Assembly: GCF_009765165.1 (NCBI RefSeq)
Contig: NZ_VLNU01000001.1
Location: forward strand, 2,097,001-2,161,000
DNA length: 64,000 bases
Reading direction: 5' to 3'
Source of the DNA: Lysobacter panacisoli
Lineage (GTDB): Bacteria > Pseudomonadota > Gammaproteobacteria > Xanthomonadales > Xanthomonadaceae
Shown here: in pieces, positions 5,547 to 57,883 of the stretch
Layout of the letters: each line of letters begins with the position of its first letter
Position numbering within the stretch: the first letter of the stretch is position 1
Translations under genes and position numbers: made by a program
Notes under the pieces: model-generated
What the model was told of the DNA's origin: nothing
Seen by the model: only the letters and a program-made list of their open reading frames with translations
Database searches by the model: none

Positions 5547-6088
5547 ACCGCCACGCTTTCCTCGCTTGCACGACTGTCGTCGCGCTCGCCTTCCTGCCTT
5601 CGTTCTCGACGGCTTCGCCGCCGACATCTTCGATGCCCGCCACGACCATGCACGACGCCATCCCGAACCTGCGCGAACCGCGCGCGAACCTGCTGACCGG
5701 CGGCCAGCCCGATGCATCCGCGTGGCAGGTGCTCGCGACCCAGGGTGTCACCACCGTCATCAATCTTCGTCCCGATGCGGAACTGGGCGGACGCGACGAA
5801 GCGGCGGAAGTCGCCGCGGCAGGCATGGCCTACGTGTCGATTCCCGTGGCCGGCGCGGGCGAAATCACGCCTGCGAACGCACGCGCGCTGTCGGATGCGA
5901 TCGCGAAGGCGAGCGGTCGCGTGCTCGTGCATTGCGCGTCTGGCAATCGCGTCGGTGCATTGCTTGCGCTCGGCGCAGCACAGGAGGGCGCCGATGCGCA
6001 GGCGGCGCTGGAATTCGGCAAGGACGCCGGTCTCACCGGCGCCGAACCGCGCGTGCGCGAACTGCTGGGATTGCCGCCCGCGCCGTGA
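5543..6088 (+). CDS. Secreted DUF442 (Blh N-domain-like) phosphatase/rhodanese-fold protein
   Basis: 181 residues. A signal peptide of about 25 residues precedes a DUF442/TIGR01244 domain. The domain carries NLLTGGQPD at about residues 49-57 and the Cys-X5-Arg loop HCASGNR (Cys131, Arg136) used by tyrosine phosphatases and the related sulfurtransferases. In classical Blh proteins this domain is fused ahead of the persulfide dioxygenase in the cytoplasm; here it stands alone and appears exported. It is translationally coupled to the bigR-like gene (ATGA overlap). A role in periplasmic persulfide handling is an inference; phosphatase activity is the alternative. Confidence 0.82.
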   Translation: MNRHAFLACTTVVALAFLPSFSTASPPTSSMPATTMHDAIPNLREPRANLLTGGQPDASAWQVLATQGVTTVINLRPDAELGGRDEAAEVAAAGMAYVSIPVAGAGEITPANARALSDAIAKASGRVLVHCASGNRVGALLALGAAQEGADAQAALEFGKDAGLTGAEPRVRELLGLPPAP

Positions 6089-34200: not shown

Positions 34201-34407
34201 GTGTTGGCCGGCGGCCCGGGCTCGGCGAGCCGCGCGACGATCGGCATCGTGGTGATCTTCGGCGTGTCGTTCTCCACGCTGCTGTCGTTGTTCGTGGTGC
34301 CGGCGTTCTACGTGCTGCTGGCGAAGTACACGCGTTCGCCGGAAGCGGTGTCGCAGGAGCTGGAGAAGCTGGAAGCGGAAACGCCGTCGGTGGGCGGGCA
34401 CGCGTAA
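31282..34407 (+). CDS. RND multidrug efflux inner-membrane transporter
   Basis: 1041 residues, the AcrB/MexB (HAE1) length. It has twelve membrane helices with two large periplasmic loops. The opening NLSIRRPVFATVMSLLIIVLG, the RND signature around LVLCIGLVVDDAIVVLENIQR (with the paired aspartates for proton transfer in helix 4) and GLAAKNGILIVEFANQLRDEG in the second half are clear. It pumps hydrophobic compounds out by proton antiport. It forms an operon with the adaptor upstream. The substrate range is unknown. Confidence 0.96.
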   Translation: MNLSNLSIRRPVFATVMSLLIIVLGVMAFSRLTLRELPAIDPPIVSVDVNYPGASAAVVETRITQILEDALAGVEGIETIESRSVNGRGSISIEFNLSREIEAAANDVRDAVSRVTNRLPEEADPPQIEKVEADADPILWLNMSSTRMDTLQLSDYAERYVVDRLSSVDGVAQVRIGGQQRYAMRVWLNRDALAARGITVNEVESALEAENVELPAGRIESDARDFTLRVARSYQKPEDFAQVPLGKGTDGYIVRLGDVARIELASAERRAYYRSNGEPNIGLGVVKTSTANSLDVARAVREEAERVQKTLPEGTKIFVAFDTTVFIESAVERVYHTLIEAIVLVLLVIWLFLGSFRAALIPAVTVPVCLIAAFIPLYLFGFSINLLTLLALVLCIGLVVDDAIVVLENIQRRIDLGEPRLVAAKRGTQQVAFAVIATTAVLVAVFLPVGFMEGNTGRLFRELSVALAGAVAISAFVALTLTPMMSSKLVRPHNEEKSNVVNRWVNARLDGLGARYRHFLDRSVDRPWLFGALMVVAIALSFVLFKFVPSELAPPEDRGSFQITIQGPEGAGFDYTVGQVQQVEKIVASHTGPGQVIQRYNPRVPGGFGASEEMHTGRIAVFLQDWRERDISTAAVADSLRAELGKLPGVRAMPQVSGGLVRGRGQPINIVLGGPEYAELAQWRDKILARMEKNPGFFSADSDYKETRPQMRVEIDRQRAADLGVPVTDIGHALETMMGSRRVTTFVQNGEEYDVIVQSDRELRASPADLEAIQVRARDGALIPLSNLVTLRELAEPGSLNRFNRLRAITISAGLTPGYRMGDAIEWLQQAVREELPEHAQIDWKGESREYLQAGGAVLLTFTLALLIVYLVLAAQFESFIHPFVIMLTVPLGVLGALIGLAVTGGTLNLFSQIGIVMLVGLAAKNGILIVEFANQLRDEGRNIHQAIVEASAVRLRPILMTSIATVVGAIPLVLAGGPGSASRATIGIVVIFGVSFSTLLSLFVVPAFYVLLAKYTRSPEAVSQELEKLEAETPSVGGHA

Positions 34408-34412
34408 GGGCT

Positions 34413-34450
34413 TTCCCTCTCCCCCAACCCCTCTCCCGCAAGGGGAGAGG
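34413..34450. repeat. Type A repeat half, left of the GGTGA array
   Basis: TCCCTCTCCCCCAACCCCTCTCCCGCAAGGGGAGAGGGG-type palindrome six bases after the transporter stop. It could serve as a terminator-like hairpin for the RND operon. Confidence 0.75.
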
Positions 34451-34462
34451 GGAGCGGAGCAA

Positions 34463-34557
34463 GGTGAGGTGAGGTGAGGTGAGGTGAGGTGAGGTGAGGT
34501 GAGGTGAGGTGAGGTGAGGTGAGGTGAGGTGAGGTGAGGTGAGGTGAGGTGAGGTGA
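34463..34557. repeat. Pentanucleotide microsatellite (GGTGA)19
   Basis: Nineteen perfect, uninterrupted copies of GGTGA (95 bases) lie in the 281-base gap between the RND transporter and the GNAT gene. Type A palindromes flank it on both sides. The array ends 131 bases before the GNAT ATG. Perfect long arrays change length readily by replication slippage, so copy number is likely to vary between isolates. Confidence 0.97.
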
Positions 34558-34572
34558 GAAGGCACGCCGCGC

Positions 34573-34635
34573 TTCCCCTCTCCCCTTGCGGGAGAGGGAC
34601 AGGCCGACGAAGTCGGCCAGGGAGAGGGGCGGAGT
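34573..34635. repeat. Type A repeat, right of the GGTGA array
   Basis: CCCCTCTCCCCTTGCGGGAGAGGGACAGG followed by CCGACGAAGTCGG and CCAGGGAGAGGGG. This is the standard type A layout of two nested hairpins. Confidence 0.85.
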
Positions 34636-34688
34636 ACCCTGAACACCCGTTCGGATTTCACGCCCCCTGCACGGGTACCCTGTCGGCC

Positions 34689-35252
34689 ATGAGCCTCGAC
34701 GCCCGCCCGCTCCACGACGCACGCCTGCCAGGCGAAGGCTTCGTGCTGCGGCCGTGGCGCCGTGACGATCTGGAATCGCTGCTGCGCCACGCCGACGATG
34801 CGTCTATCGCGCGTGGCCTGAGCGACCGTTTCCCGTACCCGTACACGCGCGAGGACGGTGAGCGCTTCCTCGCCGGCGACGTGGTCGACCTGCGCGATCC
34901 GGTGTTCGCCATCGAGGTCGATGGCGAAGCCTGCGGTGGCATCGGTGCGCGACCGGGGCAGGGCGAGCGTCGCCACGGCGCCGAACTGGGTTACTGGCTC
35001 GGCCAGCGCTTGTGGAACCGCGGACTGATGACGCGCGTGGTCGCGAGCTACGTGCCGTGGCTGATGCAGATGCGCGCGCTGCTCCGCGTGCAGGCGACCG
35101 TGCTGGACACCAACCCGGCCTCGGCACGGGTGCTGCTCCGGAACGGGTTCGTGGAAGAAGGCGTACAGCGTTGCGCCGTTGTGAAACATGGCGACGTGCA
35201 CGATCTGCGCGTGTTCGCCAAAGTACGAAGGAGTCTGTCCGATGCGCCATGA
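34689..35252 (+). CDS. GNAT N-acetyltransferase, RimJ/RimL type
   Basis: 187 residues. The GNAT fold pattern is GFVLRPWRRDDLESLLRHAD at the start, ELGYWLGQRLWNRGLMT (acetyl-CoA binding strand/helix), then ATVLDTNPASARVLLRNGF and EEGVQR typical of the RimJ/RimL/Ard1-like group that acetylates protein N-termini or small molecules. The acceptor is unknown. The stop lies 11 bases inside the next gene. The upstream GGTGA array and repeats make its promoter region unusual. Confidence 0.9.
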   Translation: MSLDARPLHDARLPGEGFVLRPWRRDDLESLLRHADDASIARGLSDRFPYPYTREDGERFLAGDVVDLRDPVFAIEVDGEACGGIGARPGQGERRHGAELGYWLGQRLWNRGLMTRVVASYVPWLMQMRALLRVQATVLDTNPASARVLLRNGFVEEGVQRCAVVKHGDVHDLRVFAKVRRSLSDAP

Positions 35253-36316: not shown

Positions 36317-37282
36317 TCAGCCCGGCGCGCGCAGCGGCAGGCAGGCGCGCACGCAGGTGCCGGCGCCCGCCACCGTCTCGATGTCGAACGTGCCGCCGAT
36401 CTGCTGCGCGCGTTCGCGCATGGTGATCAGGCCCAGGCCGCTGGAGTGTTCCGGGTCGAAGCCGCGGCCGTCGTCGATCACCGACAGCAGCAGTGCGTCC
36501 TCGCGCGGTGCCAGCATCACCGTCACCCGGGTCGCGCCGGCGTGGCGCAATACGTTGGTCAGCGCTTCCTGCGCGATGCGGAAGCAGGCCAGTTCCACCG
36601 CGGGCGCGGGGCGTTCCGGCAGGGGCATCAGGTCGAGTTCCAGCGTCGGCTGACCACCGCGGAACAGGCGCTCGCACTGCCAGCGCAGCGCCGCGACCAG
36701 TCCGAGCGCGTCGAGTTGCGGTGGCCGCAGCAGGATAGAGATGTCGCGCAGCTTGGCGATGGTCTGGTCGGAGATGCCGACGATCTCATCGATGATCTCG
36801 CGGCGCCCCGCGTCGTCCTCGCCGTCGAGCGAGGTGGCGGACATCTTGATCGCCGAGATCGCCTGGCCGATGTCGTCGTGCAGTTCGCGCGAAAGCCGGC
36901 GGCGCTCGTTTTCCTGCACCTCGATGAGGTGGCCGGCGAGCGCATGGAGTTCCTGTTGCTGGCGCTGCAGGTGCTCGGCGAGTTCTTCCTCGCGCGTGTC
37001 GGAACACGTGCGCCGCAACAGCAGGAACAGCAGCGCGGCGACGATCGGCAACGACAGCGCGTTGGCGATCCAGTGCGAGGCGTCGCCGAACCAGCGGCGC
37101 AGCTCCAGCGCCAGTGCCGGTGCGACCATCACCATCCACACCACCGCCAGCGTGGCCATCGCCACGCACAGCAGGAAGCCAGCGCGCCCACGCAGACGGG
37201 CGCGCAAGCTTGCGCGCCCGTTGGGCGATCCATGCAGCGGGCCGGTCGGCCCCGCCGCGGGTGGTGGAGGCGTCGCGTTCAT
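36317..37282 (-). CDS. Two-component sensor histidine kinase, HisKA_3 type
   Basis: 321 residues. Two membrane helices (about residues 33-55 and 70-88) have almost no periplasmic loop. A coiled linker rich in Gln/Glu follows, then the HisKA_3 phosphoacceptor ERRRLSRELHDDIGQAIS and an ATPase domain with GLVAALRWQCE, RIAQEALTNVLRHAGAT and DDGRGFDPEHSSGLGLITMRERA. The family is NarX/DegS-like and normally pairs with a LuxR-type regulator, but none is adjacent. It starts 17 bases after the MCP-like gene and so shares its sigma-28-type promoter. The signal is unknown. Confidence 0.92.
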   Translation of the reverse strand: MNATPPPPAAGPTGPLHGSPNGRASLRARLRGRAGFLLCVAMATLAVVWMVMVAPALALELRRWFGDASHWIANALSLPIVAALLFLLLRRTCSDTREEELAEHLQRQQQELHALAGHLIEVQENERRRLSRELHDDIGQAISAIKMSATSLDGEDDAGRREIIDEIVGISDQTIAKLRDISILLRPPQLDALGLVAALRWQCERLFRGGQPTLELDLMPLPERPAPAVELACFRIAQEALTNVLRHAGATRVTVMLAPREDALLLSVIDDGRGFDPEHSSGLGLITMRERAQQIGGTFDIETVAGAGTCVRACLPLRAPG

Positions 37283-37299: not shown

Positions 37300-38472
37300 T
37301 CAGAAGAGCTCGACGCTACCAGCATCCATCGACTGCTGCATCACCGCCTTGTGCGGCGGACGCTCCCATTCCACGCGCATCTGCGCGATGCGCTGGCCGA
37401 GCTGGTGCAGGGCCTGGCGTACTTCCGCATCGGCGCGGTCGGCGCGGTGCAGCAGCTGGTGCAGGGCGGTGGCCTCGCGGTTGATCGCGCTCAGGCGGTC
37501 CAGGTGCGTGGTGGCCGCGCCCAGGGCCTGGGTGGCGATGTCCTCGAACTGCAGCGAACGCACCGCCTCGGCCACGGAACCGTCGATCGAGCGGCCGCAG
37601 TCGGCGATCTCGCGCATGCCGTTGCCCAGGCCGCGGTTGATGCCGTCCACGCGTTCCAGCATCGCCGCGGCTTCGGCGCGGGCGCCGCGCGAGCGGTCCA
37701 TGTCCCGCGAGGCCATCGTGCTGACCGTGTCGCGGACGCGGGCGATGGAGTCCTTGGAGCTGTGCGCGAGCTTGCGGATCTGCTCGTTGAAGGCGGTGGA
37801 GCGTTCCGACAGGTTGCGCACCTCGTCGGCGACGACCGCGAAACCGCGTCCCGCTTCGCCGGCACGCGCCGCTTCGATCGCTGCGTTGAGCGCGAGCAGG
37901 TTGGTCTGGTCGGCGATGGACTTCACGTCCTCGAGCAGCGCGAAGATGCCGTCCAGGTGTTCGGCCATCGCGTCGATGTGGGTGACGGTGGTGGTGCTCT
38001 GGCCGCTCACCGCTTCCAGCGCCTCGACCAGCTGTTCCATCTGCTGGCTGGCCTGCAGGGCGAAGCGCGAAACGTCCACGCCACCGTGTTCGCCGTCGGT
38101 GCGGTCGATGATGCGCGACACCACTTCGCTCTGTTCGCGCGACTTGCGGTTCACCGCCTCGAAGCTCACGCCGAGCTTGGCGACGGACTCGCGGATCAGG
38201 CCGCGGGTGCGCTCGATCTCGCCGCGCGAACCCTGCACTTCGGAACTGACGAAGTTGCGCAGGTCGTCGAGCAGTCGGGTCTGTTCGCGCAGCATCGCTG
38301 CGTCGTTGTGGCTGGGACGCTGCATTGTCCAGGCGAAGCCGAGCCACGCGAGCGTCATCGCGACCAGCGCGCCCCATCGCACGGCGTCGGGCCAGCCCAG
38401 CGCTTCGGCGGTAATCAGCAGGGAAGTCAGCACCACGGGCGCTGCAAGGCGAATCAGTACGCGGGAATCCAT
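37300..38472 (-). CDS. MCP-like signalling protein with GSVELF tail
   Basis: 390 residues. Two N-terminal membrane helices (about residues 6-24 and 30-50) with no periplasmic domain and no HAMP domain lead into a coiled coil. The MCP signalling tip follows: [36 protein letters not shown]. The C-terminus is MDAGSVELF, and the last six residues are identical to those of CheD encoded nearby. It has its own sigma-28-like promoter and is followed after 17 bases by a histidine kinase. It may sense an internal or membrane state rather than an external ligand. Confidence 0.9.
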
Positions 38473-38501
38473 CTTCGATCTCACCGAATGGGGCAAGTTA
38501 G

Positions 38502-38528
38502 ATAACGGCTGGTGTGGCGGGTGCTTTA
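38502..38528 (-). promoter_or_regulatory. Sigma-28 (FliA) promoter of the MCP-like/kinase operon
   Basis: On the - strand, TAAA (38525-38528), exactly 15 bases, then GCCGTTAT (38502-38509). The consensus is TAAA-N15-GCCGATAA. It lies 30 bases upstream of the ATG. Confidence 0.78.
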
Positions 38529-38592
38529 GCGGGAAATGCCGGGGAATTCGGGGTTTGTGCTGCGTGATGGCGGTCGCGGTTCTGCGCGCCCG

Positions 38593-38775
38593 ACCCCTCT
38601 CCCTGGCCGACTTCGTCGGCCTGTCCCTCTCCCGCAAGGGGAGAGGGGAGCGCATGTTCACGCCGAAGGTGTGTTCTGCTGCTTCTGTTGCTTCTGTTGC
38701 TTCTGTTGTTGCTGTTGTTGCTGTTCCCTTCTCCCCTCGCGGGAGAAGGTGCCCCGAAGGGGCGGAAGAGGGGGC
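38593..38775. repeat. Type A repeats and a CTTCTGTTG microsatellite
   Basis: Two type A palindromes (38593-38651 and 38726-38775) flank a simple-sequence tract at about 38674-38727. The tract is made of CTTCTGTTG-like nonamers degenerating into GTTGCTGTT. It lies between the cheB stop and the MCP-like gene's promoter. The tandem-tract-between-palindromes layout is the same as at the GGTGA array. Confidence 0.85.
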
Positions 38776-38778
38776 GCC

Positions 38779-39849
38779 TCAATCGTGCGCCGTGCCCGCC
38801 AGCAACCGCTGCGCGACCTGCGACAACGGCACCGTGTCCTGTGCCGCACCGAGTGCGACCGCCGCGCCCGGCATGCCCCACACGACGCTGCTGGCCTCGT
38901 CCTGCGCGATCGTCGCCGCGCCGGCCTTGCGCAATGCGAGCAGCCCGCGCGCGCCGTCGTCGCCCATGCCGGTCAGCAGCGCCGCGCTGGCGTTGCCGCC
39001 GACGTGTTCGGCGACCGATTCGAACAGCGCGTCCACGCTGGGACGATGGCGGCGGATCGGATCGTCGTCGCCGAGCCGGCAATGCCAGCGCGCACCGCTG
39101 CGGTACACGCGCAGGTGGCGACCGCCCGGAGCGACGTAGGCGTGGCCGGGCAACAGCTCCTGGTCGCGCTCCACGTGCACCACGGTCATGCGGCTGTGGC
39201 GGTCGAGGCGATCGGCGAACGGCGCGCTGAACGCGCCCGGGATGTGCTGCGCGATCACCGTTGCCGGTGCATCGGCGGGCATCTGCGCCAGCACTTCGCG
39301 GATCGCCTCGGTGCCGCCGGTGGATGCGCCGATCGCGATCAACCGGTGCGTCGTGCGGTAGGCGACGGCCGGCGCGTTCGCGGCGATCTCGCCGATGCGT
39401 TCCGGTTTGTGCGCGACCACACGCGCCTTCGCTGCCTGCTTGATCTTCTCGACCAGCAGGCCGGCGTATTCGGTCAGCCCGCGCGCGACGTCGAGCTTGG
39501 GCTTGGCGATGAAATCCACCGCGCCCAGCGAGAGCGCGTCGAGCGTGACCTGCGCGCCGCGCTCGGTCAGCGTGGACACCATCACCACCGGCATCGGCCG
39601 CAGGCGCATAAGGTTGCGCAGGAAGGTCAGGCCGTCCATGCGCGGCATCTCGACGTCGAGGGTCAGCACGTCGGGATTGAGCTGCTTGATCTTGTCGCGG
39701 GCGATGTACGGATCGGCGGCGGCGCCGACGACCTCGATGCCGGGGTCCTCTTCCAGCAGCTGCGTCATCAGCTGGCGCACCAGCGCCGAATCGTCCACCA
39801 CCAGGACCTTGATGCGATGCTGCCTGGCGATCTTCGGTAACGCGTTCAT
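38779..39849 (-). CDS. cheB: CheB methylesterase/glutaminase response regulator
   Basis: 356 residues. The receiver domain has [11 protein letters not shown] and the phospho-accepting Asp65 in [12 protein letters not shown]. The C-terminal esterase domain carries the catalytic serine in [12 protein letters not shown], histidine in IAQHIPGAF and aspartate in [12 protein letters not shown]. It removes methyl groups from, or deamidates, chemoreceptors. Its ATG shares a base with the cheD stop. It is the last gene of cheR-cheD-cheB. Confidence 0.97.
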
Positions 39850-40451
39850 CAGAACAGTTCCACGCTGCCGCTCGCCGGCTCTTTCGCCAGGCGTCCGTAG
39901 TAGGCGCGCTCGGCGTCGACGATGACGTCGTTGCGCGCCGACGGCAGGCGCTTCACCAGCGTGCGTCCGGTCTGGGCGAAGAAGCACACCTTGCGCGGGT
40001 GGATATCGCCCAGGTCCTGCGCGACGACCGGGATGCGTTCGGCCGCGAGGTAGTCGAGCACGAAGCAGGCGTTGCGCGTGCCGATCGGATCGCTGTAGAA
40101 GCCGCTGAGAACGTTGCCGCCGCCGAATACCTTGGCCTGCAGGCGCGAGCGTCGAGCGCCGCGCTTGAGCAGATCGTTGATCAGCAGTTCCATCGCGTGC
40201 GCGCCGTAGCGCGAGGACACCGCCTCGGCGTCGCCGCCGGGCAGCATGAAGTGGTTCATGCCGCCGACCGCGAGCAACGGGTCGTACAGGCACGCGGCGA
40301 CGCACGAGCCGAGCAGCGTGACCAGCGCGATCGGCCGATCGGTGACGCGGTAGTCGGCCGGCAGCAGCTTGATCGCCTCGGTCTGCAGCACCGGGTCGTA
40401 GTAACTGCCGGGCTCGACGGGTGGTCTGGCGAGGGAAGTGGCGGCGGTCAT
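39849..40451 (-). CDS. cheD: CheD chemoreceptor glutamine deamidase
   Basis: 200 residues. The catalytic cysteine is in [13 protein letters not shown] and the histidine in [22 protein letters not shown] ([14 protein letters not shown]) follows. CheD deamidates receptor glutamines and in some species binds CheC. The C-terminus ends [10 protein letters not shown], sharing GSVELF with the MCP-like protein encoded 1.4 kb downstream. It overlaps cheR by four bases and cheB by one base. Confidence 0.96.
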
Positions 40452-41293
40452 CGGCGCAGTCCTGCGGCGGGGCGGTAGGTCGTTCGGCCGCAGGGAGTGA
40501 TCAGGTCATGGGCATGACCGAAGCTTTCCGAGTGTCCGGCGAAGAGGAGGCCGTCGGGTGCGATCAGCGGTGCGATCCGCTGCAGCACCTGGTACTGCGT
40601 GGCCTTGTCGAAATAGATCATCACGTTGCGGCAGAACACCGCATCGAACCCGCCGCGCAGGCCGTAGTCGTCGGCCAGCAGGTTGAGCGGGCGGAACTCG
40701 ATCAGCGCCTGAAGTTCCGGCTTGACCCGGCACAGGCCGTTGTTGGCGCCGCTGCCGCGCTGGAAGAACTGGCGCCGCCGCTGCAGCGACAGGGTGTTGA
40801 TGCGTTCCACCGGATACACCCCGCGCGCGCCGGTCTGCAGCACGTTGGTGTCGATGTCGGTGGCGAGGATGCGTACCGGCGGCGTCATCGTGCCGTACGC
40901 CTCGCAGGCGGTGATCGCGAGCGAATAGGGCTCCTCGCCGGTCGAGGCGGCGTTGCACCAGATCGTCTGCGGCTTCGCACCGCGCGAACGCAGGTGGCTG
41001 GCGAGGATGTCGAAGTGGTGCGATTCGCGGAAGAACGACGTGAGGTTGGTCGTGAGCGCGTTGACGAAACCCTGCAGCTCTTCGTCGGGCTCGGCCTCGA
41101 CGAGGTCGAGGTAATCGCCGAAGCGGTCCATGCCCAATGCCCGCACGCGTCGCGCCAGGCGGCTGTAGACCATGTCGCGCTTGTGCGGGTGCAGGTGGAT
41201 GCCGGCACGGTCGCGGATCATGCGGCAGACGCGGCGGAAGTCGCGTTCGTCGAAGGTGAATTCGCGTTCGTCTTGGCTGCGCGAGGGACGCAT
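40448..41293 (-). CDS. cheR: CheR chemoreceptor methyltransferase
   Basis: 281 residues from the ATG at 41293. The N-terminal helical domain contains [21 protein letters not shown]. The SAM-binding domain contains [39 protein letters not shown] and [15 protein letters not shown]. CheR methylates chemoreceptor glutamates with SAM. Two chemoreceptors in the window end in DWQEF, a likely CheR-tethering pentapeptide, and one of these is directly upstream. A type B repeat lies in the 181-base gap before it. Confidence 0.97.
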
Positions 41294-41317
41294 GGGGGGC
41301 TCGGAAGTATCGCGTTC

Positions 41318-41412
41318 GTAGCCCGGGCAAGCGAAGCGCACCCGGGGCGTTTGCATCGTTGGAACCGGGCGGTGAAGAACCCGGGTGCGGCCACCGGCCT
41401 TACCCGGGCTAC
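41318..41412. repeat. Type B palindromic repeat, copy 2
   Basis: GTAGCCCGGGCAAGCGAAGC and GCACCCGGGG, then the inverted partner ACCCGGGTGCGGCC and TTACCCGGGCTAC. It sits between the chemoreceptor and cheR. Confidence 0.85.
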
Positions 41413-41434
41413 ATGTGTTGCGGTTGCGCCAGCT

Positions 41435-41459
41435 CCCTCCCCTGCGTGCAGGGGAGGGG
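41435..41459 (-). terminator. Hairpin after the WQEF chemoreceptor
   Basis: CCCTCCCCTGC and GCAGGGGAGGG form an 11-bp stem 16 bases downstream of the chemoreceptor stop. No T tract follows, so it is a terminator-like or processing hairpin. A looser relative is at 28380-28404. Confidence 0.5.
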
Positions 41460-41474
41460 ATCACGTCGTTACTT

Positions 41475-44144
41475 TCAGAACTCCTGCCAATCCGGCTCGG
41501 CGCTGTTGGCGGCGGCGGTCGCGCGGACCTTGCGCGTCGTCGCGGCCTTGGCGACCGGTGCGGCCGGCTTGGCCTTGCCCGGCTTGCCGGCGGCCATTTC
41601 GACCACCGTCGCCTGCGTGCGCGTGGACTGCGCGGCGTGGGCGAGACGGAACACCGCGACCGTGTGCACCAGCTGTTCGGACTGCTGTTCCAGGCTGCGC
41701 GCGGCGGCCGATGCCTGCTCGACGAGTGCGGCGTTCTGCTGCGTGCCCTCGTCCATCTGGGTGATGGCGTTGTTGACCTGCTCGATGCCCGAGCTCTGTT
41801 CCTGCGACGCCGCGGAGATGTCGGCGATGATGTCGGTGACCTTCTTCACGCTGGTCACGATTTCGTCCATCGTGCGACCTGCGTGACCGACCAGCACGCT
41901 GCCTTCCTCGACCTTGGTCATCGAGTCGGTGATCAGCTGCTTGATCTCCTTGGCGGCATTGGCCGAACGCTGTGCGAGCGAGCGCACTTCCGCGGCGACC
42001 ACCGCGAAGCCGCGGCCCTGCTCGCCTGCGCGCGCGGCTTCGACCGCGGCGTTCAGCGCCAGGATGTTGGTCTGGAAGGCGATGCCGTCGATCACGCCGA
42101 TGATGTCGCCGATCTTCTTCGACGAAGTGGTGATCGCGGTCATCGTCTGCACGACTTCGCCCACCACCGTGCCGCCCTGGCCGGCGACTTCGGCCGCGCT
42201 CTGCGCGAGCTGGTTGGCCTGGCGCGCGTTGTCGGCGTTCTGGCGGACCGTGCTGGTCAGCTCTTCCATCGACGAGGCGGTTTCTTCCAGCGATGCGGCC
42301 TGCTGCTCGGTGCGCTGCGACAGGTCGTTGTTGCCGGCGGCGATCTCGGCGGCGGCGCTGCTGATCGCGTCGGAACCCTGGCGGATCTGGCCGACGATCT
42401 GCGCGAGCTGCTCGACGGTGCGGTTGGCGTCGTGCGAGAGACGCCCGAACTGGCCGGGCAGTTCGACTTCGACGCGACGGTTGAGATCGCCGTCGGCGAC
42501 GGCCGCCAGCAACGAACCCACTTCGTGCAGGCCTTCCTCGGCGGTGGCCATCAGCTGGTTCAACGACTGCACGACGTCGCGGTACACGAACTCGAAGCGC
42601 GCAGCGTCGCCACGGCGGCTGAAGTCGCCGGCGACGGCGGCATCGACCAGCGTCTTGATCTCGGCGTTGATCGCCTGCATGCCGTGCTTGACCGAATCGA
42701 CCGAGTCGGTGATGCGCGCCTTCTGGCCCGGCAGGCGGTCCATGTCCATCGACAGGTCGCCGCGCGCGTAGGCTGCGACGATCTCCATCGCACGCGTGTT
42801 CACCTGGATGTGCGAATCGACCAGCGTGTTCACCTCACCGGCCATCTGGCCGTACGCGCCCGGGAAGTCCTCGCTGCGCAGGCGGCGATCGATCTCGCCG
42901 GCCTGGTGCGATTCGAACAGGTCGCGCTGTGCACCGGCGAAACCGCGCAGCGTGTTGATGGCGCGTTCCAGGCCACGCGCGATGTCGCGCACTTCGTCGC
43001 GGCTGTTCACGCGCACCGCGTCCGGGAACTCGCCGCGGGCGAGCAGCTCGGATGCGTTCTGCACTTCGCGCAGCGAGTTGCGCGTGCTGCGGCTGAAGCC
43101 GAGGAACAGATAGGCGGCGATCAGCAACAGCAGCGTGCACGCGCCCAGCGTCAGCGCGGTGCGCTGCTGCAGGCGTGCGATTTCGGCGCTGGCGGCGTCG
43201 TCGAGCGAGGCGTTGGCGGCCGACATCGCGGCGGCCAGGGCCATGCGGGTGGCTTCCACGCGCGCGGCCATGATCTTCACCGGCAGCACCGGCGTTTCCG
43301 CATCGAGCACATGCTTCTGGATGTCTTCGTTCTGCTTGGCCACGGCATCGAGCGCCTTGCGGAACGGCTTGCCGATGGTGTCGGTGAGCGCCGGCATTTC
43401 TTCCTCGGCGTCCTTCAGCTCGACTTCCGAACGCGTGCGCACGTAGTCCTGCATGTTCCGCGACACGGCCAGGCCAGTGCGATCGTCGACCCAGATCGCG
43501 CCGTCGCCGAGCACGCGCAGCACGGTGGCGCTCTGCTGGGCGGTGTACTCGGCCAGCGTCGGCACCCACACGGTCGCGGTGCGGCCCATGTACAGCACCG
43601 GCGCGTTCTGCGCCTGCGCCAGACCGGTTTCGTCGGCGATCAGGCTGTGGATGTCGCCGAGCTTGCGCACGGCGGCCAGGTGGTCGGCGGATGCGGCGGC
43701 CGAGTCGGCATGGTCGCCGGTGGCCTTGGCCCACGCGGTGCGCGCTTCCTGCAGCGCGCCGGCCACGGTGGAGTCGGGGAGCTGGCCGCGCTGCCATGCG
43801 GCGAGGCCGTCGAGTTCGCGGCCGACCTGCGCGGCGGACTGTTCCAGCGCCTGCGCGCCGATCTCATCCTTGGCGAACTTGCGCACCACCAGCTGCTCGT
43901 GCTGCTGCATGCCCAGCATCGCGCGGTGCAGGTGGCCCAGGCCGACCACGGCGGCGCGCTGGCTGCGCGCGGCGTCGATCTCGGCGTTGGAGCGGACGAC
44001 CAGGATGCCCGCGAGCACGCCGCAGGTCAGCATGAAGGCGGCGCCGATCACCATCGCCTTCTGGTTGAAGCGCAGCTGCGACATCAACTGCGTGGCCGGA
44101 CCCAGGATGCGGTCGAGCAGGGTGGAAGTTGAGCGGGTGGACAT
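41475..44144 (-). CDS. Methyl-accepting chemotaxis protein with long ligand domain and WQEF tail
   Basis: 889 residues. The first membrane helix is at about residues 30-50 and the second near residue 335 ([18 protein letters not shown]), giving a periplasmic domain of about 280 mostly helical residues. Two or three HAMP-like linkers precede the signalling domain with [26 protein letters not shown] at the tip. The C-terminus EPDWQEF fits the CheR/CheB tethering pentapeptide. A sigma-28-like promoter precedes the gene. A lysine/proline/alanine-rich flexible arm (about residues 855-880) holds the pentapeptide. Confidence 0.95.
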
Positions 44145-50049: not shown

Positions 50050-52317
50050 TCAGAACTCCTGCCAGTCGCGGTCGCTGTTCGCCGCCGACTGCGCGCGCAC
50101 CGCGCGTGCGACCGGCGCCGGGCGTGCCGGCGCGGGTGCACGGCGGACCGGTGCGCCGATGACGACGTCCTCGCGTACGCGAGCCGGTGTCGTCGACTGC
50201 GCGAGGCGGAACACCGCCACCGTCTGCACCAGCTGGTCGGCCTGCTGTTCCAGGCTGCGCGCGGCGGCGGATGCTTCTTCCACCAGCGCGGCGTTCTGCT
50301 GCGTGCCTTCGTCCATCTGGGTGATGGCGTTGTTGACCTGCTCGATGCCGGCGCTCTGTTCCTGCGATGCCGCGGAGATGTCGGCGATGATGTCGGTGAC
50401 CTTCTTCACGCTGGTCACGATCTCGTCCATCGTGCGGCCGGCCTGGTCGACCAGCTGGCCGCCCTGGTTCACCTCGACCACCGAATCGGTGATCAGCTGC
50501 TTGATCTCCTTGGCCGCGTTCGCCGAACGCTGCGCCAGCGAGCGCACTTCGCCGGCGACGACCGCGAAACCACGGCCCTGTTCGCCGGCACGCGCGGCTT
50601 CGACCGCCGCGTTCAGCGCGAGGATGTTGGTCTGGAATGCGATGCCGTCGATCACGCCGATGATGTCGGCGATGCGACGCGACGATTCGTTGATCGCGTT
50701 CATCGTCTGCACGACCTTGCCGACGATCTGGCCGCCCAGCGACGCGACTTCGGCGGCGGTCTGCGACAGGCCGTTGGCCGACCGCGCGTTGTCGGCGTTC
50801 TGGCGCACGGTGCTGGTCAGTTCTTCCATCGACGATGCGGTTTCTTCCAGCGATGCCGCCTGCTGCTCGGTGCGCTGCGACAGGTCGTTGTTGCCGGCGG
50901 CGATCTCGCCGGCCGCGCTGCTGATCGCATCCGAACCTTCGCGGATCTGACCGACGATCTCGGCCAGGCGATCGACGGTCTCGTTCGCATCCTGGCTCAT
51001 CTGCGCGAATACGCCGCGGTACTCGCCCTGCATGCGCTGGCTCAGATCGCCGCGCGCCACGCCGCGCAGCAGCACGGACAGCGCGGACAGGTTCTCGTCG
51101 GCAGTCGCCATCAGGCGATTGAGCGTGTCGAGCATCGCGCGGAAGTCGTGCTGGAAGCGCGTCGCGTCGCCGCGCGCGGCGAAGTCGCCGTCGGCGGCGG
51201 ATTCGGCCAGCCGCTGGATCTCGCCGTTGATCGCGCGCAGGTTCGTCTTCACCGAATCCATCGTGCGCGTGAGCACCGCCTTCTCGCCGGGCAGGCGGTC
51301 CATGTCCTGGCTCAGGTCGCCCACGGCGTAGCGCTCCATGATGGAAAGCGCGCGCTGGATCGCATCGATGTGCGAGGCGACCAGGCCGTTGGTCTCGCGC
51401 ACCATGCGTCCGTACGCGCCGGGGAATGCGTCGGCGTCGATGCGGTAGCTGATCTGGCCTTCGTCGTGGCGACGCGCCATTTCGCCCTGCGCTAACGAAT
51501 AGTCGTTCAGTCGCACGCGCATGCGGTCCAGCGCCTGCAGCAGCTCGCCGATCTCGTCGCGTGCCATCGTCCCGTCGCCGCTGCGCAGGTCGAGGTCGAA
51601 GTTGCCGTCGGACATCGCCTTGGCGGCCTGCGTGGCGCGGCGCACCGAGGCGGCGATGCTGCGTGAGATCAACACGCTCAGCAGCACCACCGCGGCCAGC
51701 GCGACGAAGCCCGCCAGCAGCAGCATGCCGGCGAAACGCCATGCGCGCGCGGCGATGTCGTCGGTGTACTCGCCGCTGCCGACGACCCAGCCCCAGCGCG
51801 GCTGCAACGCGACGTAGGAGATCTTCATCACCGGACCGTCGACGCCCGGCTTGGGCCATTCGTAGTCGACGTAACCGCCGCCGGCACGCGCGGTCTTCAC
51901 CATCTCCACGAAGATGCGCTTCTTGTCGGCGCTGATGAAGTCGGTCAGGTCCTTGCCGTTGAGCGCGGTCTGGTGCGGGTGCATGAGCATGCGCGGATGC
52001 TCGTCGTTGACCCACAGGTAGTCGGTGCCGTCCTTGCTGCGCAGGGTTTCGATCACCTTCAGCGCTTCACGCTTGGCGACGTCTTCCGGCAACTTGCCGG
52101 CCTGCGCGAGGTCGGCGTAACGCTGCACGACCGTCATGGCCGCGCCGACGCGCTGGTGCAGGCGCGCGCGTTCGAACTCGATCTGGCCGGAGTGGTTGCG
52201 CTGCACCGCGATGGCGGCGAGGACGACGATGCCGAACGCGAGCACGGCGATCATCCAGGTGAAGCGGGCGCGCAGGGAAAGGGCGGAGAAGCGGAACAGC
52301 GACGAAGCGTTCGGCAT
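50050..52317 (-). CDS. Methyl-accepting chemotaxis protein with single Cache domain and WQEF tail
   Basis: 755 residues. Two membrane helices (about residues 18-40 and 192-217) bound a periplasmic domain of about 150 residues. The motif DGTDYLWVNDEHPRMLMHP marks a single-Cache (sCache_2) sensor for small ligands. HAMP-like linkers follow, then the signalling tip [26 protein letters not shown]. The C-terminus is SDRDWQEF, the probable CheR-tethering pentapeptide. It is the last gene of block 2. A weak sigma-28-like -10 lies upstream. Confidence 0.95.
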   Translation of the reverse strand: MPNASSLFRFSALSLRARFTWMIAVLAFGIVVLAAIAVQRNHSGQIEFERARLHQRVGAAMTVVQRYADLAQAGKLPEDVAKREALKVIETLRSKDGTDYLWVNDEHPRMLMHPHQTALNGKDLTDFISADKKRIFVEMVKTARAGGGYVDYEWPKPGVDGPVMKISYVALQPRWGWVVGSGEYTDDIAARAWRFAGMLLLAGFVALAAVVLLSVLISRSIAASVRRATQAAKAMSDGNFDLDLRSGDGTMARDEIGELLQALDRMRVRLNDYSLAQGEMARRHDEGQISYRIDADAFPGAYGRMVRETNGLVASHIDAIQRALSIMERYAVGDLSQDMDRLPGEKAVLTRTMDSVKTNLRAINGEIQRLAESAADGDFAARGDATRFQHDFRAMLDTLNRLMATADENLSALSVLLRGVARGDLSQRMQGEYRGVFAQMSQDANETVDRLAEIVGQIREGSDAISSAAGEIAAGNNDLSQRTEQQAASLEETASSMEELTSTVRQNADNARSANGLSQTAAEVASLGGQIVGKVVQTMNAINESSRRIADIIGVIDGIAFQTNILALNAAVEAARAGEQGRGFAVVAGEVRSLAQRSANAAKEIKQLITDSVVEVNQGGQLVDQAGRTMDEIVTSVKKVTDIIADISAASQEQSAGIEQVNNAITQMDEGTQQNAALVEEASAAARSLEQQADQLVQTVAVFRLAQSTTPARVREDVVIGAPVRRAPAPARPAPVARAVRAQSAANSDRDWQEF

Positions 52318-54590: not shown

Positions 54591-55076
54591 TCAGGCGGCG
54601 TTGGCGTGCGCGACCAGGCCCATCTCGGCACTGGTCATCAGACGCTCGATTTCCAGCAGGATCAGCATGCGCTCGCCCTGCGTGCCGATGCCGGTGATGA
54701 ACTGGCGGTCGATGGTCGCGCCGATTTCCGGCACCGGACGGATCTGCTCGGAGGCCAGGCGGATCACGTCGGACACGCTGTCCACCACCATGCCCACGAC
54801 GCGGTCGGCGACGTTGAGCACGATCATCACCGTCAGCGCGTTGTACTCGGCTTTGGCGAGGCGGAACTTCAGGCGCATGTCGATCACCGGCACGATGGTG
54901 CCGCGCAGGTTGATCACGCCCTTGATGTAGTCCGGTGCGTCGGGCAGGCGGGTCACGGTGTCGTAGCCGCGGATCTCCTGCACCTTGAGGATCTCGACGC
55001 CGTATTCCTCCTCGCCCAGGGCGAAGGTCAGGTACTCGTCGGCCGATTCGGTGGCGGTGATATGGTCGTGGCTCAT
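54591..55076 (-). CDS. cheW: CheW scaffold protein
   Basis: 161 residues. The CheW beta-barrel motifs are YLTFALGEEEYGVEILKVQEI, PDYIKGVINLRGTIVPVIDMR and VDRQFITGIGTQGERMLILLEIE-type sequences. CheW couples chemoreceptors to CheA in arrays. It follows cheA, separated by a type B repeat. The 219 bases between cheW and the PAS chemoreceptor contain nothing I recognise. Confidence 0.96.
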   Translation of the reverse strand: MSHDHITATESADEYLTFALGEEEYGVEILKVQEIRGYDTVTRLPDAPDYIKGVINLRGTIVPVIDMRLKFRLAKAEYNALTVMIVLNVADRVVGMVVDSVSDVIRLASEQIRPVPEIGATIDRQFITGIGTQGERMLILLEIERLMTSAEMGLVAHANAA

Positions 55077-55183: not shown

Positions 55184-57157
55184 TCATGCCGCCTGCGCGA
55201 CCCGCTGCGCCTGCACGAAACCGCCGACGTCGACGATCAGCGCGACGCGGCCGTCGCCGAGGATGGTCGCGCCGGAGATGCCCTGCACGCGGCGGTAGTT
55301 GGATTCGAGGTTCTTGACCACGACCTGCTGCTGGCCGAGCAGTTCGTCGACTTCCAGCGCCAGGCGCTGGCCGTCGGCCTCGACCACCACGGCGATCGCC
55401 GCGGTCTCGCGCACCGGGCCGTCCAGCCCGTACTGCGCGGCGAGATCGAGCAGCGGCAGGTAGTCCTCGCGCACGCGCAGCACGCGGGCTTCGCCAGCGA
55501 TGGTGCGCACGTCGCCGACGGCGGGCTGCAGCGATTCGATCACCGAGTTGAGCGGCAGGATGAAGACTTCGCCGCCGACCGCGACGGTCATGCCGTCGAG
55601 GATGGCCAGCGTCAGCGGCAGGCGGATCGACACGGTCGTGCCGATGTTCTTCTTCGAACGGATCTCGACCTGGCCGCCGAGCGCGGCGATGTTCTTCTTC
55701 ACCACGTCCATGCCGACGCCGCGACCGGACAGGTCGGTGAGCTGTTCGGCGGTGGAGAAGCCGGGGTGGAAGACCAGGTCCCACACCTGCGCGTCGGTCG
55801 GGTTGTCGCCGATCGGCAGTCCGCGTTCTGCGGCCTTGCGCAGGATGCGTTCGCGATCCAGTCCGCGGCCGTCATCGCTGATCTCGATGACGATGTGGCC
55901 GCCCTGGTGTTGCGCGTTGAGGCTGATGGTGCCGGTTTCGTCCTTGCCCGCGGCGCGGCGTTCGGCCGGCATTTCCAGGCCGTGGTCGATCGAATTGCGA
56001 ACCAGGTGCACGAGCGGATCGACGATCTTCTCGATCACGCCCTTGTCCAGTTCGGTCGCTTCGCCGCTGGTGCGCAGGCGCACCTTCTTGTCCAGGCGCG
56101 TGGCGAGGTCGCGGACCATGCGCGGGAAGCGGCTGAAGGCGAATTCCACCGGCAGCATGCGCACGCCCATCACCGCTTCCTGCAGGTCGCGGGTGTTGCG
56201 GTCTAGCTGTTCCAGGCCCGACAGCAGCATCTCGTTGGCGACCGGATCGAGCTGGGTCGAACGCTGGCGCAGCATCGCCTGGGTGATGACGAGTTCGCCG
56301 ACGAGGTTGATCAGCGCATCGACCTTGTTGACCGCGACGCGGATCGAGCTGTCGCCGTCGTTGGTCGTGTTGCGCGCGGCGGCGGGCTCGTTGCGTGCGC
56401 CGATGGCGACGACGTTGTCGAGCACTTCGGCCGAGGGCGGCGGGGCCACGGCGGAACGCGCCGGGATCGCTTCGATTGCCAGTTCGCACTGGTCTTCGAC
56501 CCATGCGAAGGCGTCGTCGATCGCGCTGCGCGGCACGCTGCCGGGCAGCATCAGGTCCCACGCGAGGTAAGCCTCGTAGGGATCGAGTTCGGAGAACGAC
56601 GGCAGCGCGGTGTCGAGGCAGGTGACGCCGAGTTCGCCGTGGCTGCGCAGTTCGCGCAGGATGCGCAGCGGATCGTTGCCGGACAGGAACATCGACGGCG
56701 CCGGCTTGAAACCGATGCGCCACTCGGCGATCTCCGGTTCCTGCGCGGCGACCTTGGCGGACGAGGCTGCGACTTCGCGGCCCATCATCTTCGCCAGGCC
56801 GTCGTGCGCGCGCTTGAGTCCGGCTTCGTCGATCGCGTCGCCGTGCTCGGCGGCGCCGAGCAGGCCACGCAGCGCGTCGCCTGCGACCAGCAGCGCACCG
56901 ATCGCGTCGACGTCGAGCTGGCGGCGCCCGCTGCGCGCTTCATCGAGCAGGGTTTCCAGCTGGTGGGTCAGTTCGCTGATCGCGGTGAAGCCGAACGTGG
57001 CCGCGCCGCCCTTGATCGAATGCGCGGCGCGGAAGACCACGTTGATGGTCTCGCCATCGGCCGAACCGGACTCCATCGCGAGCAGGCCCGCTTCCATTGC
57101 GTCCAGGTTTTCGCGGCTTTCCTCGAAGAACGCGGCGTGGAAACGGGTGATGTCCAT
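55184..57157 (-). CDS. cheA: CheA histidine kinase 1
   Basis: 657 residues. The Hpt domain has His46 in AAHSIKGGAATFGF. A P2-like CheY-docking domain lies at about residues 145-240 (WRIGFKPAPSMFLSGNDP). Dimerisation, ATPase and CheW domains follow: VDALINLVGELVITQAML, HLVRNSIDHGLEMP, DDGRGLDRERI and FSTAEQLTDLSGRGVGMDVVK. It phosphorylates CheY and CheB. It lies between cheY (38 bases upstream) and cheW. Confidence 0.97.
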   Translation of the reverse strand: MDITRFHAAFFEESRENLDAMEAGLLAMESGSADGETINVVFRAAHSIKGGAATFGFTAISELTHQLETLLDEARSGRRQLDVDAIGALLVAGDALRGLLGAAEHGDAIDEAGLKRAHDGLAKMMGREVAASSAKVAAQEPEIAEWRIGFKPAPSMFLSGNDPLRILRELRSHGELGVTCLDTALPSFSELDPYEAYLAWDLMLPGSVPRSAIDDAFAWVEDQCELAIEAIPARSAVAPPPSAEVLDNVVAIGARNEPAAARNTTNDGDSSIRVAVNKVDALINLVGELVITQAMLRQRSTQLDPVANEMLLSGLEQLDRNTRDLQEAVMGVRMLPVEFAFSRFPRMVRDLATRLDKKVRLRTSGEATELDKGVIEKIVDPLVHLVRNSIDHGLEMPAERRAAGKDETGTISLNAQHQGGHIVIEISDDGRGLDRERILRKAAERGLPIGDNPTDAQVWDLVFHPGFSTAEQLTDLSGRGVGMDVVKKNIAALGGQVEIRSKKNIGTTVSIRLPLTLAILDGMTVAVGGEVFILPLNSVIESLQPAVGDVRTIAGEARVLRVREDYLPLLDLAAQYGLDGPVRETAAIAVVVEADGQRLALEVDELLGQQQVVVKNLESNYRRVQGISGATILGDGRVALIVDVGGFVQAQRVAQAA

Positions 57158-57195: not shown

Positions 57196-57561
57196 TCAGC
57201 CAAGGACCTTGCGGACGGTGGCCAGCAGCTGTTCGGGATCGAACGGCTTGACGAGCCAGCCGGTCGCGCCGGCGGCCTTGCCCTCGGCCTTCTTGTCGCC
57301 ACCGGATTCGGTGGTGAGCATCAGCAGCGGGGTGAAGCGGTAGTCGGGCAGCTGGCGCAGCTGGCGGATCAGTTCGATGCCGTCCATGCGCGGCATGTTC
57401 ACGTCCGTCACCACGGCGTCGAAGCGGGTGGTGCGCGCGATGTCGAGCGCGGCCTGGCCGTCTTCGGCCTCGCGCACGCTGAAGCCGCCGCCGGTCAGGG
57501 CGAAAGCGACCATCTGCCGCATGGAGGTGGAGTCGTCGACGATGAGCAGGTTCTTGGACAT
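57196..57561 (-). CDS. cheY: CheY response regulator
   Basis: 121 residues, receiver domain only. The acidic pair is in LLIVDDSTSMR, the phosphoacceptor is Asp53 in VTDVNMPRMDG, the Thr is in MLTTES and the Lys in LVKPF. Phospho-CheY binds the flagellar switch. No cheZ is present nearby, so dephosphorylation must be managed elsewhere or by another phosphatase. Confidence 0.96.
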   Translation of the reverse strand: MSKNLLIVDDSTSMRQMVAFALTGGGFSVREAEDGQAALDIARTTRFDAVVTDVNMPRMDGIELIRQLRQLPDYRFTPLLMLTTESGGDKKAEGKAAGATGWLVKPFDPEQLLATVRKVLG

Positions 57562-57598: not shown

Positions 57599-57883
57599 TC
57601 AGGCGGCCGACGGCGTGTCGACGCCGAGGCTGCATGCGAGCGCAAGCTGGCGTGCGGCTTCGGCCAGCACGGGCGACGCGTCGGTGACGGAAGTCGGATG
57701 GCCGAGCGCAGCGCGTTCGCGCACGAACGCATGGAGCATCTGCAGGCCGGCGGTGTGCACGCGTTCGACGCGGTCGCCGTTCAGCGCGAGCGGGCCCTGG
57801 TCTTCCAGGTGCGCGCGCAGGACGGTCTGCAGGTCTGCGACGTGTTCGATGCCCAGGTCGGGCGGCAGTGGCAGTGCGTTCAT
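57599..57883 (-). CDS. STAS-domain protein
   Basis: 94 residues with the STAS pattern: GIEHVADLQTVLRAHLEDQGPLALNGDRVERVHTAGLQMLHAFVRE. The position equivalent to the phospho-serine of anti-sigma antagonists reads HTAGLQ, with a threonine that could be phosphorylated. STAS genes of this kind sit next to cheY and cheA in several gammaproteobacteria, but the role is unclear. It begins 70 bases after a type A repeat. Confidence 0.82.
   Translation of the reverse strand: MNALPLPPDLGIEHVADLQTVLRAHLEDQGPLALNGDRVERVHTAGLQMLHAFVRERAALGHPTSVTDASPVLAEAARQLALACSLGVDTPSAA

What the first reader, a model, noticed from the sequence alone, without database searches (positions are those of the whole stretch)
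37300..40451. Identical C-terminal GSVELF hexapeptide on CheD and on a nearby MCP-like protein
CheD (39849-40451) ends GSVELF and the MCP-like protein (37300-38472) also ends GSVELF. The codons differ at four of six positions (GGC AGC GTG GAA CTG TTC against GGT AGC GTC GAG CTC TTC). The identity is therefore kept at protein level and is not a recent DNA copy. Known chemoreceptor tails (NWETF-like) bind CheR or CheB. A tail shared by the deamidase and a receptor-like protein suggests a common docking partner, for example CheY, a phosphatase or the array. I am not aware of this tail being described.
Basis: partly seen in the sequence, partly recalled or inferred. Interest (0 to 1): 0.75.

Follow-up and report, generated by a model that had tools for sequence, protein, structure and literature searches.

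The report
Shared docking tail on chemotaxis enzymes
Two neighbouring bacterial signalling proteins end in the same short tail, which many relatives have kept and which also occurs on proteins resembling the enzyme that switches chemotaxis signals off, so it is probably a docking tag for a shared partner.

Summary
In detail: on the minus strand, CheD (39849-40451) and an MCP-like protein (37300-38472) both end GSVELF, with different codons at four of six positions. It is not chance. In a sample of 274 genomes of the class, 89 of 95 CheDs of this cluster type carry the tail or a variant; none of 19 other CheDs does.

The MCP-like protein is of the known McpA-like type of F7 chemosensory clusters, whose conserved C-terminus is in print with an 'unclear biological role' (PMC7184735). 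Not found in print in my searches: McpA-like receptors carry a CheZ-type D-x3-Q motif about 80 residues before the end (36 of 38 assigned by hairpin alone; 0 of 97 other MCPs); small unnamed proteins share motif and tail; CheD shares the tail, in matching form (40 of 41 typed pairs), and lacks it in all 8 loci seen to hold a canonical CheZ.

Best reading: a docking peptide of F7 systems that brings a CheZ-like phosphatase (receptor-fused or free) and CheD to one partner, most likely the F7 CheY. Partner and activity are inferred. No structure model could be run.

The parts
37300..38472 (-). McpA-like short MCP (390 aa): N-terminal hydrophobic segments (by eye), no HAMP found, MCP hairpin, CheZ-like C-terminal region, GSVELF tail
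   Evidence: PF00015 is its only Pfam match at E 0.001
37303..37320 (-). GSVELF tail of the McpA-like protein
37528..37554 (-). LQFEDIATQ (residues 307-315): CheZ-type D-x3-Q motif (D311, Q315)
   Evidence: QFEDxxxQ in 120 of 120 listed homologues
39849..40451 (-). CheD, chemoreceptor glutamine deamidase (PF03975; NCBIfam NF010013 equivalog)
39852..39869 (-). GSVELF tail of CheD
38779..39849 (-). CheB (receiver + methylesterase), between CheD and the McpA-like gene
40448..41464 (-). CheR (ORF; true start may be 41293)
41475..44144 (-). HAMP-type MCP ending DWQEF (classical xWxxF pentapeptide)
50050..52317 (-). MCP ending DWQEF (named by eye)
54591..55076 (-). CheW-like coupling protein (named by eye)
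55184..57157 (-). CheA of this cluster (named by eye)
57196..57561 (-). single-domain CheY of this cluster (named by eye): proposed docking partner
57599..57883 (-). STAS-like (anti-sigma-antagonist-like) protein (named by eye), matching the stage-1 F7 gene order

Best explanation
The GSVELF tail is a C-terminal docking peptide of stage-1/2-type F7 chemosensory systems. It sits behind a variable linker on two classes of protein: (a) CheZ-like phosphatases, either fused to an array receptor (the McpA-like protein) or free-standing, with a D-x3-Q motif some 50-100 residues before the C-terminus (80 in the window); and (b) CheD. Proposed working: phosphorylated CheY of the F7 system is held by the tail while the D-x3-Q pair enters its active site and speeds dephosphorylation, as the C-terminal peptide and D143/Q147 of E. 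coli CheZ do. CheD uses the same tail on the same CheY surface, so CheY-P level recruits or sequesters the deamidase and feeds back on receptors. Shown here: the tail, its conservation, its link to the D-x3-Q motif, matching variants, and its absence from CheD where canonical CheZ sits in the locus. Inferred: flexibility, phosphatase activity, CheY as partner, feedback. Sub-confidences: docking peptide about 0.9, CheZ-type phosphatases about 0.7, F7 CheY as partner about 0.5.
For: CheD tail: of 95 high-scoring CheDs, 73 end strictly [VI][ED]LF (+0-2 residues), 85 fit a broader pattern, 89 carry some form; of the low-scoring group 0 of 20 rows (19 distinct genes) do. MCPs assigned by hairpin-only two-fold models: 36 of 38 McpA-like have both motif and tail (the other 2, assigned by margins of 11 and 1 bits, have neither); 0 of 97 other MCPs have either. 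hhalign sets the D-x3-Q region on that of CheZ (probability 85%, E 6e-6; ordinary-MCP control 5%, reversed 2.5%, 20 column shuffles at most 0.9%). Stand-alone small proteins: of the 120 listed of 2,570, all have FYD-x3-Q and 117 end [VI][ED][LF]F. D to C-terminus: 78-82 (120 close McpA-like homologues), 83-89 (120 small proteins), 72-89 (23 CheZ). Genomes: 77 of 87 with high-scoring CheD have a CheZ-like hit, 13 of 187 without do; CheD is tail-less in 5 of the 10 without a CheZ-like hit and 1 of the 77 with one. L/F at position -2: 35 L/L, 5 F/F, 1 L/F, 0 F/L. Canonical CheZ in locus: class sample 0 of 89 tailed, 3 of 6 tail-less (0 of 52 and 3 of 5 with at least 7 kb of flank); order sample 0 of 20 loci, 19 tailed by pattern and 1 ending EVEIFE; 5 of 5 tail-less loci of one genus-level set. 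F7-like CheY in locus: 52 of 66 tailed, 1 of 5 tail-less (Fisher 0.013). Print: stage 1-2 F7 clusters have cheY, while only F6 clusters also include cheZ (PMC7184735, passages); CheZ and FliM bind a common face of CheY (PMC3774744, passages).
Against: No binding, activity or structure datum. CheZ likeness rests mainly on the motif: masked, the hhalign probability falls to 3.7%, though in the same register, and to 17.4% with only D and Q masked; the small family alone does not match CheZ (0.2%). The tail is not the CheZ C-terminal peptide (..VDDLLSSLGF type). The models were trained on proteins chosen for motif and tail. PMC7184735 says stage-4 clusters keep the F7 cheY, so tail loss there is less well explained by CheY docking. 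Of 66 tailed loci, 14 show no F7-like CheY within reach. Five genomes have a tailed CheD but no CheZ-like hit (G032, G144, G177, G184, G257), 13 have a CheZ-like hit but no high-scoring CheD, and one tail-less CheD has a CheZ-like neighbour (L034). McpA-like receptors are reported to associate with the F6 array (PMC7184735; PMC7534058, passages). Counts are not corrected for shared ancestry.
Confidence: 0.5

Rival explanations
1. The tail is a variant of the xWxxF pentapeptide that tethers CheR or CheB; x-V-x-L-F binds the CheR beta-subdomain or CheB.
For: Same length and terminal F; two of the window's MCPs end DWQEF. PMC11940527 suggests E-W/V-E-X-F of V. cholerae System III receptors may bind CheR3 (section 15). 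CheB2 of P. aeruginosa binds GWEEF (PMC7698151, passages).
Against: [quoted passage not shown] aeruginosa. CheD and the stand-alone small proteins are not receptors but share the tail. Among MCPs examined it goes with the D-x3-Q motif.
Confidence: 0.15
2. The tail docks on another shared array component (CheA, CheW, the receptor bundle, or a STAS/serine-phosphatase output), placing CheD and the CheZ-like proteins together without touching CheY.
For: PMC7184735 says the McpA-like receptor, an anti-sigma antagonist and a serine phosphatase were lost together in stage 3, while stage-4 clusters keep the F7 cheY. Nothing run here identifies the partner.
Against: STAS-like protein found in 23 of 66 tailed loci against 52 of 66 for F7-like CheY (the STAS search used one sequence and is weak). 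CheZ precedent points to a receiver.
Confidence: 0.25
3. The tail is a C-terminal degron or polar-localisation signal rather than a docking site of the phosphorelay.
For: Short hydrophobic C-termini can serve so (recalled, no call).
Against: Of the MCPs examined only those with D-x3-Q have it; matching L/F variants within loci; absent from CheD in the loci with canonical CheZ.
Confidence: 0.07
4. Coincidence or a recent DNA copy of a gene end.
For: About 2 shared terminal hexapeptides are expected by chance among all protein pairs of such a genome; the genome-wide pattern count equals its control.
Against: Codons differ at 4 of 6 positions; conservation across the class.
Confidence: 0.01

Closest known systems
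McpA-like receptors of F7 systems (PA0180/CttP, VCA1088/Mlp44, SO_2117)
   Same: MCP beside F7 clusters, V at position 2 of the terminal pentapeptide, conserved C-terminus (PMC7184735, section 11; PMC7534058 passages; PMC9855816 passages)
   Different: In the passages read, no phosphatase motif and no tail shared with CheD is mentioned; role called unclear. I did not see the PA0180, VCA1088 or SO_2117 sequences
CheZ (PF04344)
   Same: D-x3-Q active-site motif, then a C-terminal peptide ending in F at a similar distance
   Different: Other terminal peptide (VDDLLxxLGF type); the window protein has no Pfam CheZ match; receptor-fused, or a small stand-alone protein
CheR/CheB tether pentapeptide xWxxF (NWETF, GWEEF)
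   Same: C-terminal pentapeptide ending F on a linker
   Different: V, not W/F/Y/H, at position 2; present on non-receptors
B. subtilis CheC-CheD-CheY-P
   Same: Couples CheD to the CheY-P phosphatase step (PMC3513319, start of abstract and passages)
   Different: There CheD residues M101/F102 meet CheC; here a shared C-terminal peptide is proposed

Membership tests
McpA-like receptor (F7) | MCP signalling domain, no HAMP, next to F7 cheR-cheD-cheB | tested here: met
   F7 by gene order, no CheA tree
McpA-like receptor (F7) | no xWxxF; V at position 2 of the last five residues | tested here: met
   S-V-E-L-F
McpA-like receptor (F7) | sequence similarity to PA0180 itself | not tested
   PA0180 not obtained; the genome-contig scan returned one MAG locus, the query's own source
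CheZ | D-x3-Q pair aligned to the CheZ motif | tested here: met
   weak without the motif
CheZ | Pfam PF04344 above cut-off | tested here: not met
   window protein: no hit; L131 relative E 8e-4; four ORFs that are also McpA-like-region hits score below cut-off, E 3e-6 to 4e-4
CheZ | C-terminal peptide of the VDDLLxxLGF type | tested here: not met
CheZ | four-helix bundle fold | not testable with these tools
   structure prediction never accepted, queue full (22 refusals, first, last)
CheZ | CheY-P phosphatase activity | not testable with these tools
   needs a bench assay
CheR/CheB tether pentapeptide | -x-[HFYW]-x(2)-[HFYW] | tested here: not met
   V at position 2
CheD | PF03975 above cut-off with conserved C and H | tested here: met
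   99 bits; C50 and H67 invariant in 47 sequences, the window's and 46 of 120; their catalytic role is recalled

The most novel reading that the evidence does not exclude
McpA-like receptors are array-embedded CheY phosphatases: the missing CheZ of stage-1/2 F7 systems, with an unnamed stand-alone version in some F7 clusters and elsewhere in other genomes. CheD competes for the same CheY-P surface through an identical tail. That would give gammaproteobacteria a CheY-P to CheD feedback loop analogous to CheC-CheD in Bacillus but built on a transferable C-terminal peptide, which was given up where F7 took in the canonical cheY/cheZ pair.
Probability: 0.4. Interest if true: 0.85.

Novelty: new variant of a known kind. 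Interest (0 to 1): 0.72.

Why it matters
PMC7184735 left open why McpA-like C-termini are so conserved and what these receptors do for F7, and noted that F7 clusters of stages 1-2 have cheY while only F6 clusters also have cheZ; PMC3774744 remarks that no cheZ lies in V. cholerae cluster III. A receptor carrying a CheZ-type motif and a docking tail shared with CheD would answer these together and is directly testable with purified proteins. It would also suggest a function for a family of small proteins (2,570 found) whose listed members are unnamed, 'hypothetical', or in a few cases named after other proteins, and give a simple C-terminal signature for members of this phosphorelay.

Tried and rejected
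Structure prediction of the McpA-like protein and CheD was never accepted, so there is no buried-tail test and no fold comparison. A profile search of solved structures listed no CheZ among its 31 matches, which are mostly coiled-coil, helical or designed proteins. The genome-contig scan, meant to reach a named Pseudomonas, returned one MAG locus, the query's own source. Plasmid searches gave named cases: Vibrio sp. THAF191d (CheD DDDVELF; MCP with LQFTDIIVQ and GEVELF) and Azospirillum CheD ending GDVELF; Cupriavidus CheD has an internal AVELF and Tritonibacter ends NVTLF. Alignments A3 and A4 were collected by the motif and tail themselves, so their invariant columns are circular. The A3/A4 genome searches used models that include the tail. 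The 140-bit border between CheD groups was set after seeing the gap from 148 to 124 bits; one low-scoring gene is counted twice there because two fetched regions overlap (L071, L139). The 20 order-sample loci were the 20 best-scoring of 60 CheD hits; L300-L304 were picked as same-genus relatives of a tail-less case and L305 from another family, so they add few independent events. The F7 label rests on gene order and CheD score, not on a CheA tree. Recent DNA copy and chance: rejected.
Full report
Observation. Both genes lie on the minus strand of the window. The MCP-like protein (37300-38472, 390 aa) ends ...[12 protein letters not shown] and CheD (39849-40451, 200 aa) ends ...ASGSVELF. The codons differ at 4 of 6 positions. 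In the genome, the DNA pattern for V-E-L-F-stop occurs only at these two gene ends, but the backwards-read control also finds 2, so the count itself proves nothing. From composition, about 2 shared terminal hexapeptides are expected among all protein pairs of such a genome, and about 1.5e-5 among the 45 pairs of a ten-gene cluster. Conservation settles it: of the 120 listed homologues each, all MCP-like proteins end [VI]ELF, and 109 CheDs end VELF with 9 more ending VELFS.

Setting. On the minus strand the cluster reads STAS-like, CheY, CheA, CheW, MCPs, CheR, CheD, CheB, MCP-like (STAS-like, CheY, CheA and CheW named by eye), with other genes between some MCPs. This is close to the order that PMC7184735 gives for a stage-1 F7 system (section 10 read), so the MCP-like protein takes the place of its McpA-like receptor. 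The classical xWxxF tether is present on the MCPs at 41475-44144 and 50050-52317 (DWQEF). A canonical CheZ of the genome lies just beyond the window end.

Distribution of the CheD tail. I searched 274 genomes of the class for CheD; 92 had one. I fetched 114 regions around the hits. With a model built without the tail, the CheD ORFs (window included) fall into 95 scoring 148 bits or more and 20 scoring 124 or less; the latter are 19 distinct genes, one lying in two overlapping regions. In the upper group 73 of 95 end strictly [VI][ED]LF with at most two more residues, 85 fit a broader pattern, and 89 carry some form when an internal copy followed by a short extension, or a final FF/YF, is allowed. 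In the lower group 0 of 20 do. Aligned from the C-terminus, the last two residues L and F of the 62 sequences that end exactly [VI][ED]LF are fixed by selection, but G at position -6 (52 of 62) is not.

Who else carries it. In the same regions 38 non-CheD ORFs end in the tail, against 0 for reversed and 0 for scrambled versions. Of these 38, 36 have [LFM]QFxDxxxQ, 52-98 residues before the end; the other two are a doubtful short frame in L099 and a GGDEF protein in L112. The 36 are McpA-like MCPs or small proteins; of 11 small ones, 6 were scanned against Pfam and 4 against NCBIfam without a match above cut-off. To avoid selection by the motif, I assigned MCPs with hairpin-only models trained on the other half of the set: 38 were assigned to the McpA-like type, of which 36 have both motif and tail and 2 borderline ones neither; 97 other MCPs have neither. 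The training proteins had been chosen for motif and tail, so a distant McpA-like protein without them could be missed. A homology search with one small protein found 2,570 proteins; of the 120 listed, all have FYD-x3-Q and 117 end [VI][ED][LF]F. In 22 loci looked at by eye within about 1.5 kb, most of the small genes stand among unrelated neighbours, a few beside cheR/cheD/cheB. In six loci with low-scoring CheD, MCPs with the same motif end DITFF, DVTFF or similar, while CheD there has no tail. So in this sample the tail goes with the D-x3-Q proteins first, and with CheD only in F7-type loci.

Is the motif CheZ-like? Profile comparison of the McpA-like C-terminal region with CheZ aligned 66 columns and set D-x3-Q on the CheZ D-x3-Q (probability 85%, E 6e-6). 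Ordinary MCPs gave 5%, the reversed profile 2.5%, and 20 column shuffles at most 0.9%. With the motif masked the value falls to 3.7%, in the same register, and with D and Q alone masked to 17.4%, so the case rests mainly on the motif. The McpA-like and small families match each other strongly (98.6%, E 1e-15; both include the tail), while the small family alone does not match CheZ (0.2%). Pfam CheZ hits a few relatives below cut-off. The distance from D to the C-terminus is alike: 78-82 in 120 close McpA-like homologues, 83-89 in 120 small proteins, 72-89 in 23 CheZ, though wider in the class-wide set. CheZ inserts a Gln and an acidic residue into the CheY active site (PMC3035606, passages).

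Links between the tail-bearers. By genome, 77 of 87 with high-scoring CheD have a CheZ-like hit and 10 do not; 13 of the remaining 187 do (the models include the tail). CheD is tail-less in 5 of those 10 and in 1 of those 77. Of 41 CheD-partner pairs in which both tails could be typed at position -2, 35 are L/L, 5 F/F, 1 L/F and 0 F/L (Fisher 8e-6; the five F/F loci are from five families; 3 further pairs with untypable CheD tail were dropped). In the class sample a canonical CheZ lies in the fetched locus in 0 of 89 tailed and 3 of 6 tail-less cases; with at least 7 kb of flank, 0 of 52 and 3 of 5. The three are from three families. In the order sample 20 of 20 best-scoring loci have a tailed McpA-like protein and no CheZ; CheD is tailed in 19 by pattern and ends EVEIFE in the other. 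Five same-genus relatives of a tail-less case all have CheZ and no CheD tail; a sixth locus, from another family, has the tail, a CheZ-like MCP and no CheZ. These eight CheZ loci probably represent few evolutionary events. An F7-like CheY is found in 52 of 66 tailed and 1 of 5 tail-less loci with at least 6.5 kb of flank (Fisher 0.013).

Mechanism. The simplest reading is a CheZ-like arrangement: a catalytic helix pair, a linker, and a C-terminal peptide that holds the receiver. CheD carrying the same peptide would then visit the same CheY. CheR is a weaker candidate, because V at position 2 is reported to prevent CheR binding in P. aeruginosa (PMC7184735), although a V. cholerae review suggests CheR3 (PMC11940527). 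Against CheY: PMC7184735 states that stage-4 clusters keep the F7 cheY, yet CheD is tail-less in the CheZ-bearing loci seen here; and 14 of 66 tailed loci show no F7-like CheY in reach. A diguanylate cyclase ending NDDIELF about 500 bases upstream of a cheY of the same type (by eye) in one genome fits the idea but is a single case.

Print. Ten literature searches brought up no description of the CheD tail, of a CheZ-like motif in McpA-like receptors, or of the small proteins. They cover only open-licence PMC papers; I read listings, passages and three sections, no supplements and no whole paper. The receptor half of the tail is known from PMC7184735 and PMC11940527. Verdict: a real, conserved and functionally linked tail; partner and activity remain to be tested.

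Noticed in passing
L246 3906-4934 (+), genome G249: GGDEF diguanylate cyclase ending NDDIELF, about 500 bases upstream of a cheY that by eye is of the F7 type (5444-5812): a possible third kind of tailed protein, one case.
   Followed up: partly
window 36317-37282 (-): HisKA_3 histidine kinase starting 18 bases after the McpA-like gene ends, probably the same operon; its H-box reads HDDIGQ, which also contains D-x3-Q.
   Followed up: no
window 38490-38780: Between cheB and the McpA-like gene: a REP-like inverted element (CTCTCCCC...GGGAGAGG) and CAACAG-type short repeats, seen by eye.
   Followed up: no
L243, L244 (Azospirillum plasmids): CheD ending GDVELF, standing among mostly metabolic genes in the annotated record (L243); L244 carries no annotation. 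No tailed CheZ-like protein seen within 9 kb in either.
   Followed up: partly
L103, L122, L139, L141, L143, L144: In loci whose CheD is not of the F7 type, short MCPs with LQFQDR-x2-Q end DITFF, DVTFF, DIVFF, EIEFF or GLEFF: a sister tail, perhaps the VC1394-like 24H receptors mentioned in PMC7534058 (that link is a guess).
   Followed up: partly
window about 34300-34700: Short tandem repeat giving (HLTSP)n in a reverse reading frame at the end of the RND-type transporter gene (named by eye).
   Followed up: no
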